Shown here: piece after piece, positions 31,632 to 33,868 of the stretch
Layout: every line of letters starts with the position of its first letter
How positions within the stretch are numbered: the stretch's first letter is position 1
From: Kitasatospora sp. NBC_01266
GTDB lineage: Bacteria > Actinomycetota > Actinomycetes > Streptomycetales > Streptomycetaceae
Assembly (NCBI RefSeq): GCF_036242395.1
Contig: NZ_CP108458.1
Coordinates: forward strand, 248,001 to 312,000
Length of the DNA stretch: 64,000 nucleotides
Direction of reading: 5' to 3'
Notes under the pieces: generated by a model
The model's input: the letters and a program-made list of their open reading frames with translations, nothing else
What the model was told of the DNA's origin: nothing
Databases searched by the model: none
Made by a program: the position numbers and the translations under genes

Positions 31632-32210
31632 TCAGCGCGCGGGCCGCAGCGGCTGCGGAGCAGCGCCGCTCAGCGGACGGGCCCCTGCCGTGACCGGCTG
31701 GTCGTAGGTCCGACGGATACTGGTGCCGCTCAGGCTGACGTCGAGGCCGTAGACGTGCAGCGAGACGGTCCTGTCCGTGGTGGCGTTGCGGACCCGGTGG
31801 ATGTCGCCGGGTGGCGTGACGTAGGTGACGGCACCTTCGCGGTGGACCGTGGTGCTGACGGGGACCAGGACGGTGCGGCCGCCCTCCGTCGCCAGCCGGT
31901 AGACGGTCTCCTCCTCGGCACCCAGGTAGGTGCCGACCACGCACCAGGAGGCGTGGTCGTGGATGCTGGTCGCCTGGCCGGGCAGCCAGACCAGGGCGAC
32001 CACCGAGAAGGAGCCGTCGGGCTCGGCGTGCAGCAGGTGCTGGCGGTAGCCGTGCGGATCGGGCTCCAGCTGGGCCGGAAGCAGCAGGTCGGCGTGGCGC
32101 AGAAAGGGGGCCAGGCGGGCGGCGACCCGCTGGGCGCACTCCTCGGCGTTCGAGGCGGCGCTCAGTTCGGTCCGGATGGCGGCCGTCAGCTCGATGAGGA
32201 TCGCGGTCAT
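31632..32210 (-). CDS. Cysteine dioxygenase-like cupin protein
   Basis: 192 aa from the ATG at 32210, two bases after the stop of the cysteate-synthase-like gene. Cupin metal ligands are visible as SIHDHASWCVVG (H-x-H) and GDIHRVRN (third His), as in type I cysteine dioxygenase, which oxidises Cys to 3-sulfinoalanine. Coupling to cysteate synthase and position next to mbtH place it in the NRPS cluster. There it could supply sulfinoalanine, or sulfite after transamination and desulfination. The substrate is inferred, not shown. Confidence 0.8.
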   Translation of the reverse strand: MTAILIELTAAIRTELSAASNAEECAQRVAARLAPFLRHADLLLPAQLEPDPHGYRQHLLHAEPDGSFSVVALVWLPGQATSIHDHASWCVVGTYLGAEEETVYRLATEGGRTVLVPVSTTVHREGAVTYVTPPGDIHRVRNATTDRTVSLHVYGLDVSLSGTSIRRTYDQPVTAGARPLSGAAPQPLRPAR

Positions 32211-32212
32211 GG

Positions 32213-33571
32213 TCAGACCGTCACGGCGGTCAGCCGCGGCGCGGCGACCAGCGCCGCGAGCTCGGCGATGCCGGCCGCGTCGTGGACGGCCGAGCGCGGC
32301 ACCACCAGGTCCGGCTGACGGGCGGTCAGCACGTGGTCCCGGGCCAGGCGGGCCCGCCCGCCCCCGGTGACGTTGAGCAGCACGGGTGCCCCGGTGTCGA
32401 GCCGCCCCGCCTGGGCGGCCTCCCGCAGCGCCGCGAGTGCGACCCCGGCGGCCGGCTCGATGTCGATCCCCTCCAGCTCGAGGAAGGTGTCCATCGCGGC
32501 CTGAGCCGCCTGCGCAGTGGCCGTGAAGACCTGGCCCGCGCTCTGGGTCAGCGCGTCGTACAGGCCGCCGCGCACGTCGTAGGGCGGTCGGCGGTTGGTC
32601 AGCTCCGGCGCGAACGCCCGCTCGGTGGCCAGTCGTTGGTCCTGCTCGCCGCCGGTCTCCCAGAGGCGTTCGCCGGTCTGCCAGGCCTGGTGGACCGGGG
32701 CGTACGCGTCGTTCTGGGCCAGCAGCAGGTGCGGCAGCGGTCCGGGTCGGCGACATCGCAGCCGCAGCGCCGCCTCGTGCGCCGCGATGGCCCCGGCCCC
32801 GCTGCCGATGGCCTGGACGTAGTACGCGGGCAGCGCTCCGATCGCCTCCACCGCCGCGAGCAGCACGGTGCCCAGGCCGTCGCGCCGTCCGACGTTCTTC
32901 GTGCCGCCCTCTGGTGTGAAGCCGGGCAGCTCGGCGAGCGCGTCGCCGAGCGCGATCGCGTCCGCGTAGTCCGCCCCGTCGACCGCGATGACGCGCACCC
33001 ATGGGGATCCGAGCGTGCGGGTGCGCAGCCGCGGCACGGCGGAGGACGGCACGACGATGACCACCGGGACCTGCTGGCGGGTGCAGAGCTCGGCGAACGC
33101 GGCGGCGGTGTTGCCGGCGGAGGTGACCACCAGGGTGCCGGCGTCCTCGGGGATCCGGCCCAGCACGGTGGCGGCTTCGAGTTCCTTGAAGGTGCCGGTC
33201 ATCAGGTCGCCGCCGCGCTCGGGCCAGTAGCCGTTGAAGGCGATCCACAGCTCGTCCAGCCCGAGCGAGGCGGCCAGGCGCTCGCTGCGGTAGACCGTGC
33301 TGCGGCCGGTGCCGGCCAGGGTCCGGCGTACCGGCAGCCAGTCGCGGTAGCGGAAGACGCCGCTCGCGGCCGGGTCGGGCGTGAACTCGGTGGCCTGGTA
33401 GTCGGTCTGCCACAGTCCGGGCCCGTGCGGGCCGGGGCAGCCGAGCGTCAGGCCGTCATCGGCCCGCCGGTGCCCGCAGCCGGAGCAGACGAGGCGGTAG
33501 TGGGACGCGTCGGTCGAATCACCGTGCATGGGGCTGGGGTTCACTCTCGGTGTGGTCGGTGCGTCGGACAT
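32213..33571 (-). CDS. Cysteate synthase-like PLP enzyme (threonine synthase fold)
   Basis: 452 aa. Fold type II PLP enzyme: the Lys-bearing motif TGTFKELEAATVLG near 127, the phosphate/substrate loop VVTSAGNTAAAFAEL near 150, and a C-terminal NVTGGGRARL. An N-terminal Cys pair (LVCSGCGHR...LGC) resembles the zinc-ribbon-like start of threonine synthases. The overall pattern fits the cysteate synthase group, which makes L-cysteate from O-phosphoserine and sulfite in methanogens. Threonine-synthase-like activity remains possible. It follows mbtH and is coupled to the dioxygenase gene. The start is chosen as ATG 33571; an internal ATG at 33529 is an alternative. Confidence 0.78.
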   Translation of the reverse strand: MSDAPTTPRVNPSPMHGDSTDASHYRLVCSGCGHRRADDGLTLGCPGPHGPGLWQTDYQATEFTPDPAASGVFRYRDWLPVRRTLAGTGRSTVYRSERLAASLGLDELWIAFNGYWPERGGDLMTGTFKELEAATVLGRIPEDAGTLVVTSAGNTAAAFAELCTRQQVPVVIVVPSSAVPRLRTRTLGSPWVRVIAVDGADYADAIALGDALAELPGFTPEGGTKNVGRRDGLGTVLLAAVEAIGALPAYYVQAIGSGAGAIAAHEAALRLRCRRPGPLPHLLLAQNDAYAPVHQAWQTGERLWETGGEQDQRLATERAFAPELTNRRPPYDVRGGLYDALTQSAGQVFTATAQAAQAAMDTFLELEGIDIEPAAGVALAALREAAQAGRLDTGAPVLLNVTGGGRARLARDHVLTARQPDLVVPRSAVHDAAGIAELAALVAAPRLTAVTV

Positions 33572-33661
33572 CCCGCCGTGCGGAGCCGGCCGCGGGCTGG
33601 GGTCGGGCCGCTGTCCGCGCGGTCGGCCCGGACCGGGCCCGGCACCCGCGGACGGCGCGGC

Positions 33662-33868
33662 TCAGGCCATCGCGCGCACCAGGCCGGCCGGCCGCATGTC
33701 GGTCCAGTGGACCTCCACGTGGTCCAGGCAGTCCTGGCGTCCGGCCGGTCCGTGCGAGGCGGTCCAGCCTGCGGGCACCTCGGCGAAAGCGGGCCAGAGG
33801 GAGTGCTGGCCCTCCTCGTTCACCAGGACCAGGTAGCTGCCCTCGGCGTCCTCGAACGGGTTCGTCAT
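33662..33868 (-). CDS. mbtH: MbtH-like NRPS accessory protein
   Basis: 68 aa with the full family pattern: NPFEDAEGSYLVLVNEEGQH, SLWPAFAEVPAGW, and WTDMRPAGL with the conserved Trp residues. GAGAGGA precedes the ATG. MbtH proteins bind and activate adenylation domains, so it should serve the two large NRPSs of this cluster. First gene of the leftward arm. Confidence 0.97.
   Translation of the reverse strand: MTNPFEDAEGSYLVLVNEEGQHSLWPAFAEVPAGWTASHGPAGRQDCLDHVEVHWTDMRPAGLVRAMA

What the first reader, a model, noticed from the sequence alone, without database searches (positions are those of the whole stretch)
31632..33868. Cysteate-synthase-like and cysteine-dioxygenase-like genes with MbtH in a Dpg NRPS cluster: possible sulfonated peptide
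Seen: mbtH, a threonine-synthase-fold enzyme resembling cysteate synthase, and a dioxygenase-type cupin lie in one leftward unit divergent from the Dpg/NRPS operon. Known: cysteate synthase makes L-cysteate from O-phosphoserine and sulfite; cysteine dioxygenase makes sulfinoalanine, which can yield sulfite after transamination. Both products are acidic analogues of Asp. Inference: the module-3 adenylation domain, with an Asp-like code altered at two positions (DATKMGHVGK against DLTKVGHxGK), may load cysteate or sulfinoalanine. I know of no described pathway joining these two enzymes to Dpg peptides.
Basis: partly seen in the sequence, partly recalled or inferred. Interest (0 to 1): 0.85.

Follow-up and report, generated by a model that had tools for sequence, protein, structure and literature searches.

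The report
Gene cluster for a sulfonated peptide
A bacterium, likely a Kitasatospora, carries a gene of the cysteate synthase family and a gene of the thiol dioxygenase family beside a five-module peptide assembly line whose third module has the same ten-letter signature as the likely cysteate-loading module of a known pathway, so it likely makes a new short peptide in which a sulfonate-bearing amino acid would sit next to dihydroxyphenylglycine.

Summary
32213-33571(-) scores 417.9 bits on the cysteate synthase model (cut-off 324.9) and its nearest solved structure is cysteate synthase. A thiol-dioxygenase gene (31632-32210) starts two bases after its stop. The A3 code DATKMGHVGK is confirmed. 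It is identical to module 2 at the one cysteate-synthase locus of Streptomyces lincolnensis, whose five A codes fit, in order, the amino acids printed for cysteoamide (Val, cysteate, Thr, hydroxy-Leu, beta-Ala). Among 297 family genomes, 14 of the 15 found with the code (one with a one-letter variant) also encode cysteate synthase. So A3 very likely loads cysteate. Nine clusters in the genus and family share Ser-X-cysteate-(Dpg)-(Val) by code; the window has 5 modules, its eight relatives 10 or 11. The 'cysteine dioxygenase' has Gln where cysteine dioxygenases have Arg, as in 3-mercaptopropionate dioxygenases. Its close copies all sit beside cysteate synthase, perhaps supplying sulfite (untested). 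Cysteate peptides are known; cysteate with Dpg, or with this dioxygenase, turned up in none of my literature searches (open-access text only). New variant of a known kind; no product seen.

The parts
31632..32210 (-). Gln-type thiol dioxygenase (PF05995; cysteine / 3-mercaptopropionate dioxygenase superfamily)
   Evidence: PF05995 47 bits, E 2.6e-12; best solved structures 6xb9 (E 5.9e-27) and 4wvz, named 3-mercaptopropionate dioxygenase (1.2e-23), against 1.1e-8 for mammalian-type cysteine dioxygenase; Gln at the Arg60 position, three metal His and Ser-His-Tyr kept; start codon
32213..33571 (-). cysteate synthase (PLP fold type II)
   Evidence: TIGR03844 417.9 bits against cut-off 324.9; PDB 9k3c cysteate synthase E 5.9e-93
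33662..33868 (-). MbtH-like protein
   Evidence: PF03621 E 6e-29
34203..35612 (+). class I/II aminotransferase, HpgT-like by position (Dpg transamination inferred)
   Evidence: PF00155 E 2.7e-27; homologue next to DpgA in the nine complete clusters
35695..36786 (+). DpgA
   Evidence: NF042429 656.9 bits, cut-off 425
36783..37595 (+). DpgB, with a repeat-rich insert
   Evidence: NF042431 263.4 bits in two stretches, cut-off 140
37592..38962 (+). DpgC
   Evidence: NF042432 699.4 bits, cut-off 530
39061..39870 (+). DpgD
   Evidence: NF042430 470.6 bits, cut-off 400
40181..52804 (+). NRPS 1: four C-A-T modules (predicted Ser, Val/Ile, cysteate, Dpg)
   Evidence: translation, codes
40181..41500 (+). 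starter-type condensation domain of module 1 (predicted N-acylation)
   Evidence: 46% identical to the first C domain at the S. lincolnensis locus, 26-29% to other C domains; nearest solved structures 7c1k and a CDA synthetase I chain
41615..43050 (+). A1, code DVWHLSLVDK (Ser, recalled code); ends approximate
44711..46150 (+). A2, code DAFFWGVTFK (Val/Ile type, inferred); ends approximate
47843..49280 (+). A3, code DATKMGHVGK (predicted cysteate); ends approximate
49460..50767 (+). condensation domain after the cysteate module, unlike the others (D-specific or dual type, inferred)
   Evidence: 23-25% identical to the other elongation C domains, which are 69-74% identical to each other
51029..52470 (+). 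A4, code DAYHGGTLCK (predicted Dpg); ends approximate
52801..56718 (+). NRPS 2: C-A-T-TE (predicted Val, then release)
   Evidence: Pfam domains in order; A5 code DAFWWGGTFK
55966..56682 (+). thioesterase domain
   Evidence: PF00975 E 6.7e-30, residues 1056-1294

Best explanation
The window holds a gene of the cysteate synthase family, genes over the cut-off for all four Dpg enzymes and a five-module NRPS whose third adenylation domain carries the code of the likely cysteate module of the cysteoamide pathway, and this cluster is predicted to make an N-acylated pentapeptide, likely Ser-(Val/Ile)-cysteate-Dpg-Val. Shown by sequence: family membership of cysteate synthase and DpgA-D, the five codes, the starter-type first C domain, the terminal thioesterase. 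Inferred: cysteate synthase joins O-phosphoserine and sulfite to L-cysteate (family knowledge); A3 loads it with MbtH help; the unusual next C domain takes it on, perhaps as the D form; DpgA-D plus the aminotransferase make Dpg for A4; the thioesterase frees the peptide. The tightly coupled Gln-type thiol dioxygenase likely oxidises a small thiol (cysteine or 3-mercaptopropionate) to a sulfinate whose breakdown gives sulfite for cysteate synthase; this is the weakest step, about 0.5 on its own. The confidence given is for cysteate in the peptide.
For: Cysteate synthase: TIGR03844 417.9 bits against 324.9, best threonine synthase model 72.6 against 303; PDB 9k3c E 5.9e-93, best threonine synthase 3.7e-9. 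A3: code identical to module 2 at the S. lincolnensis cysteate-synthase locus L072. That genome has one cysteate synthase, and its five codes DAYWWGGTFK, DATKMGHVGK, DFWNVGMVHK, DAMLIGAVCK, DVFSAGFIYK fit, in order, Val, cysteate, Thr, beta-hydroxy-Leu, beta-Ala as printed for cysteoamide in PMC13260306 (one passage). The code stands within 10 kb of cysteate synthase at 21 of 64 named loci. Control from the other side: in 297 family genomes the 30 best A3-like loci (one per genome) were read; 15 carry DATKMGHV(G/A)K and 14 of these genomes encode cysteate synthase, 2 of the other 15 do (Fisher p 2e-5). The nine complete clusters, the window included, all keep Ser, X, DATKMGHVGK, DAYH(G/S)GTLCK, DA(F/L/M)WWGGTFK in a row. 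A4 as Dpg: DA(Y/W)STGTLCK occurs at two other DpgA loci, and G055 has the A4 code but one HPPD-family gene in all, so no spare enzyme for Hpg was found there. Dioxygenase: all 7 copies at 60% identity or more lie 90-309 bases from the cysteate synthase match, while 16 others in synthase-bearing genomes do not; the label 'next to cysteate synthase' needs 2-3 changes on the dioxygenase tree, simplest as two recruitments.
Against: No product or enzyme assay. The cysteate code rests on colinearity and a second-hand description; the original paper is not held. The association is not phylogenetically independent: two independent pairs on supported branches, none opposite, p 0.5. Only one locus per genome was read. 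Exceptions: G109 has the code and no cysteate synthase in its ~800-contig assembly; G049, G300, G171 and G268 have the synthase without this code among loci read (G300 has DATKIGAVNK beside it; G049 has DSTKIGHVGK in the cluster). The Streptomyces sp. 150FB cluster joins Dpg genes and cysteate synthase, yet none of eight A domains read has an xxTK code, though an assembly gap lies inside it. A4 is less sure: five other DpgA clusters carry DALS(V/L)GTV(I/M)K, another candidate Dpg code. Three of ten clusters (G019, G121, G057) have no dioxygenase beside the synthase. Collapse of similar modules in assembly could shorten the NRPS, though the genome is in two contigs.
Confidence: 0.82

Rival explanations
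1. A3 loads Asp and the cysteate synthase serves another purpose, so the peptide has no sulfonate.
For: The code differs at one position from DLTKMGHVGK, found in three genomes (G165, G226, G273) without cysteate synthase. The discodermin cysteic-acid module is likewise predicted as Asp (PMC12858407, passages), so such codes are easily misread either way.
Against: That one position (Leu to Ala at the 236 place) tracks cysteate synthase, and the same ten letters sit at the cysteate position of the cysteoamide line. The code appears in two separated parts of the A-domain tree (the code columns were left in).
Confidence: 0.1
2. A3 loads sulfinoalanine made by the dioxygenase, as the first reader also allowed.
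For: A dioxygenase of the right superfamily follows cysteate synthase by two bases.
Against: G019, G121 and S. lincolnensis carry the same code, and G057 a one-letter variant, with no dioxygenase found beside the synthase. The enzyme has Gln, not Arg, at the cysteine-binding place.
Confidence: 0.04
3. The dioxygenase does not feed cysteate synthase but oxidises another thiol, or is dispensable.
For: Gln-type enzymes are known for 3-mercaptopropionate (recalled; molecule names), and three of ten clusters have none beside the synthase. Two relatives (G227, G108) sit next to a different PLP enzyme of the same fold.
Against: It also sits beside cysteate synthase in loci without Dpg genes (L042, L043, L080, L084), simplest read as two recruitments; this points to a shared sulfur step.
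Confidence: 0.4
4. The PLP enzyme is a true threonine synthase paralogue.
For: Same fold; weak hits to threonine synthase models.
Against: Best threonine synthase model 72.6 bits against a cut-off of 303; the genome's other full-length match, likely the housekeeping threonine synthase, reaches only 43 bits on the cysteate model. The tree could not test this, since the housekeeping enzymes were not picked up by its search.
Confidence: 0.02

Closest known systems
cysteoamide pathway of Streptomyces lincolnensis (Wang et al. 2018, J. Org. Chem. 83:7102; title seen in a reference list, monomers in one passage of PMC13260306)
   Same: cysteate synthase gene beside an NRPS; identical cysteate code; related starter C domain (46%); Val-type code just before cysteate
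   Different: no Dpg genes or dioxygenase found at the locus; an epimerase-type domain after the cysteate module (TIGR01720) that the window lacks; other monomers
JBIR-78 / JBIR-95 heptapeptides (Takeda et al. 2017; title only, seen as a reference)
   Same: cited in PMC12858407 with Wang 2018 for described cysteate-forming enzymes; N-phenylacetylated by title
   Different: gene cluster not seen; not compared
discodermins of 'Entotheonella' (PMC12858407, passages)
   Same: NRPS peptide with cysteic acid where the A domain is predicted as Asp
   Different: that paper reports no candidate cysteate gene in the genome
Dpg peptides such as glycopeptide antibiotics
   Same: DpgA-D and an aminotransferase
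   Different: no cysteate in those known to me (recalled); no P450 was looked for systematically in the window
3-mercaptopropionate dioxygenase (PDB 4wvz, 4tlf)
   Same: Gln at the substrate position, three His, Ser-His-Tyr
   Different: coupled to cysteate synthase in a peptide cluster; substrate unknown

Membership tests
cysteate synthase (TIGR03844) | score above the curated cut-off over the full length | tested here: met
   417.9 against 324.9 bits, model 1-398 of 398
cysteate synthase (TIGR03844) | makes cysteate from O-phosphoserine and sulfite | not testable with these tools
   needs an assay
threonine synthase | score above a curated threonine synthase cut-off | tested here: not met
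   best 72.6 bits against 303
cysteine dioxygenase, Arg type | Arg at the position that binds the cysteine carboxylate | tested here: not met
   Gln in the window protein; Arg in the three classical homologues aligned
Gln-type thiol dioxygenase (3-mercaptopropionate dioxygenase-like) | Gln at that position, three metal His, Ser-His-Tyr | tested here: met
Gln-type thiol dioxygenase (3-mercaptopropionate dioxygenase-like) | oxidises 3-mercaptopropionate to the sulfinate | not testable with these tools
   needs an assay
cysteate-containing nonribosomal peptides (cysteoamide type) | cysteate synthase in the cluster | tested here: met
cysteate-containing nonribosomal peptides (cysteoamide type) | A domain with the cysteoamide cysteate code | tested here: met
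   DATKMGHVGK in both
cysteate-containing nonribosomal peptides (cysteoamide type) | epimerase-type domain after the cysteate module, as in S. lincolnensis (not known to define the family) | tested here: not met
   TIGR01720 119.4 bits in L256; not among the 25 best of 40 families shown for the window stretch
cysteate-containing nonribosomal peptides (cysteoamide type) | cysteate in the product | not testable with these tools
   needs mass spectrometry
Dpg-forming clusters | DpgA, DpgB, DpgC and DpgD over cut-off | tested here: met

The most novel reading that the evidence does not exclude
The coupled dioxygenase and cysteate synthase form a two-enzyme sulfonation cassette: the Gln-type dioxygenase turns a cellular thiol into a sulfinate that sheds sulfite on the spot, and cysteate synthase captures it on phosphoserine. 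The cassette was assembled at least twice in Streptomycetaceae and feeds a family of cysteate-plus-Dpg peptides, and one Leu-to-Ala change in the Asp code (DLTKMGHVGK to DATKMGHVGK) gives a readable cysteate code for genome mining.
Probability: 0.4. Interest if true: 0.72.

Novelty: new variant of a known kind. Interest (0 to 1): 0.58.

Why it matters
Sulfonated amino acids are rare in natural products, and A-domain predictors read their modules as Asp. A code tied to cysteate synthase by colinearity and by genome co-occurrence would let such peptides be found by sequence; here it points to nine clusters, eight besides the window, that also carry the Dpg genes. The clusters also give a test case for how a cell supplies sulfite for sulfonate making (dioxygenase coupled to cysteate synthase), and a natural experiment in module loss: 5 modules in the window against 10 or 11 in close relatives.

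Tried and rejected
Sulfinoalanine as A3 substrate: rejected, since the code occurs without the dioxygenase beside the synthase. Threonine synthase: rejected by cut-offs. The cysteate synthase tree did not help on that point: its search missed the housekeeping threonine synthases. Fusion of cysteate synthase to an NRPS module in L089, L078 and others, suggested by long open frames: the A domain and the synthase lie in different frames in L089, L078 and L053, so dropped. A Dpg code from glycopeptide-like loci: ten of the eleven DpgA sites outside the window found were fetched (G399 was not), and they gave two candidate codes, DA(Y/W)STGTLCK and DALS(V/L)GTV(I/M)K, so A4 as Dpg stays an inference. 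A D-specific type for the C domain after A3 could not be settled from solved structures. A phylogenetically controlled test of code against synthase has too few independent pairs. Literature: the original cysteoamide paper is not held. Full-text searches for cysteate synthase, cysteic acid with NRPS terms, cysteate-containing/cysteoamide, cysteine dioxygenase with NRPS terms, the code letters themselves, Dpg with cysteic acid, and Kitasatospora with Dpg gave no described cysteate-Dpg peptide in their listings; of the papers listed I opened passages of PMC12858407, PMC6331615, PMC6333238, PMC13126170 and PMC13260306 only. First-codon codes of G003 and G118 (VDTMVTYGDK) are alignment failures and were not interpreted.

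Full report
What is there. The leftward unit holds MbtH (33662-33868), a PLP enzyme (32213-33571) and a dioxygenase (31632-32210). The gap between the PLP enzyme and the dioxygenase is two bases. Divergent from it run an aminotransferase, DpgA-D and two NRPS genes, 40181-52804 and 52801-56718. The genome is 8.57 Mb in two contigs. Its nearest named cysteate synthases are from Kitasatospora (91%), and the same-genus genome G055 has a contig of the same length (177,681 bases) as the record of Kitasatospora sp. GAS204B, so the source is likely Kitasatospora.

The PLP enzyme is a cysteate synthase by family. TIGR03844 gives 417.9 bits against a cut-off of 324.9 over the whole model; the best threonine synthase model gives 72.6 against 303. 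Among solved structures the best is 9k3c, cysteate synthase, E 5.9e-93, then threonine synthase at 3.7e-9. Activity is not shown.

The A3 code and its meaning. The five codes are DVWHLSLVDK, DAFFWGVTFK, DATKMGHVGK, DAYHGGTLCK and DAFWWGGTFK. Sixty-four named loci with a cysteate synthase relative were fetched; 21 have DATKMGHVGK within 10 kb, and four have DITK or DSTK variants. One of the 21 is S. lincolnensis, the organism of a published cysteate-containing peptide (title in a reference list). Its genome has one cysteate synthase. Its locus reads DAYWWGGTFK, DATKMGHVGK, DFWNVGMVHK, DAMLIGAVCK, DVFSAGFIYK. [quoted passage not shown] The order fits five of five, so the code is the cysteate code by colinearity; that this locus is the published one is my inference.

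Control from the other side. In 297 genomes of the family, 68 have an A3-like domain at E 1e-60 or better, and the best locus of 30 genomes was read. Fifteen have DATKMGHV(G/A)K (14 exact, G057 with A in place of G); 14 of those genomes have cysteate synthase over the cut-off, G109 being the miss. Of the other 15, two have it (G049, G300). In all, 18 of 297 genomes have it. Fisher p is 2e-5 within the 30, but kinship is not removed: only two independent pairs, p 0.5. DLTKMGHVGK, one letter away, occurs in three genomes, none with cysteate synthase. On the A-domain tree the cysteoamide domains and the Kitasatospora domains carry the same code but are parted by supported branches with DLTK domains between (code columns left in).

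A family of clusters. Nine complete clusters (G000, G055, G019, G001, G053, G003, G118, G133, G121) and one cut by a contig end (G057) join cysteate synthase, Dpg genes and this NRPS. All nine keep Ser, a Val/Ile-type code, DATKMGHVGK, DAYH(G/S)GTLCK and a Val-type code in a row. The eight relatives have 10 or 11 A domains and two cysteate codes (three in G121); the window has five and one. Piecewise matching shows module 1, then a jump to relatives' modules 5 to 8, ending in the T-TE of module 11. Dpg genes near cysteate synthase also occur in other Streptomyces loci (L041, L045, L083). In Streptomyces sp. Ag109_O5-1 (G077) at least 23 A domains include two DATKMGHVGK.

Dpg at A4 is inferred. 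DA(Y/W)STGTLCK is seen at two other DpgA loci. G055 has the A4 code but only one HPPD-family gene, so Hpg is less likely. Against this, DALS(V/L)GTV(I/M)K recurs at five other DpgA loci and may be a Dpg code too. In the window's genome three HPPD-family genes lie outside the window.

N-cap. The first C domain is 46% identical to the first C domain at the S. lincolnensis locus, whose product starts with phenylacetate, and 26-29% to the other C domains compared. An N-acyl cap is therefore predicted. Phenylacetyl, or even the Dpg intermediate dihydroxyphenylacetyl-CoA, is possible and untested.

The dioxygenase. It is PF05995. Its best solved relatives are 6xb9, deposited as cysteine dioxygenase type I but recalled as a 3-mercaptopropionate dioxygenase, and 4wvz, deposited as 3-mercaptopropionate dioxygenase. 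It keeps three His and Ser-His-Tyr and has Gln where classical homologues have Arg (33 of 37 rows Gln, three Arg, one unreadable). Such genes are common: 109 of 297 family genomes have a match, and the window's genome has a second copy (51%) far away. The seven copies at 60% identity or more all lie 90-309 bases from the cysteate synthase match; 16 others in synthase-bearing genomes do not. Among the 64 named loci, 7 have one within 10 kb, including four without DpgA. The tree needs two or three changes of the 'next to cysteate synthase' label, simplest as two recruitments. A supply of sulfite fits best but is not shown, and G019, G121 and G057 have none beside the synthase.

Verdict. An ordinary reading (Asp, threonine synthase) is unlikely. 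Cysteate NRPs are known, so this is a new variant: cysteate with Dpg, a dioxygenase-synthase pair, and a usable cysteate code.

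Noticed in passing
36783-37595 (about 37165-37280): DpgB carries a glycine/threonine/aspartate/alanine/asparagine repeat insert that splits its family match in two and gives a weak, below-cut-off collagen-repeat hit.
   Followed up: no
40181-56718: The NRPS looks like a natural contraction of the 11-module relatives: modules 2-4 missing, and the last module joins module 8's C-A to module 11's T-TE.
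   Followed up: partly
L269 4748-10573 and L270 2-13057: Relatives of the dioxygenase (G227, G108) lie near another threonine-synthase-fold PLP enzyme, under the cysteate cut-off (113 bits in G227), and a Ser-coded A domain: possibly a second sulfur-amino-acid cassette.
   Followed up: partly
L265-L267, L261, L268 (G077): A very large NRPS locus with at least 23 A domains, two DATKMGHVGK codes, Dpg genes and a divergent cysteate synthase in Streptomyces sp. Ag109_O5-1.
   Followed up: partly
L254 and L271 (G060): Three DATKMGHVGK domains among DVRD-type codes, with the genome's only cysteate synthase over 4 Mb away on the chromosome: cysteate would have to be supplied in trans.
   Followed up: no
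L080 and L084: Dioxygenase and cysteate synthase adjoin in loci where no A domain was found within about 10 kb, so cysteate may have a non-NRPS use there.
   Followed up: no
26581-28394: FecCD-type permease and ABC ATPase genes left of the cluster, suggesting an iron-siderophore uptake unit.
   Followed up: no
60828-61910: A DDE transposase-like gene (PF13546) at the right edge, in the stretch where GC falls to 0.64.
   Followed up: no
L098-L100 joined, 31944-33299: The aminotransferase homologue in G055 reads as two open frames.
   Followed up: no
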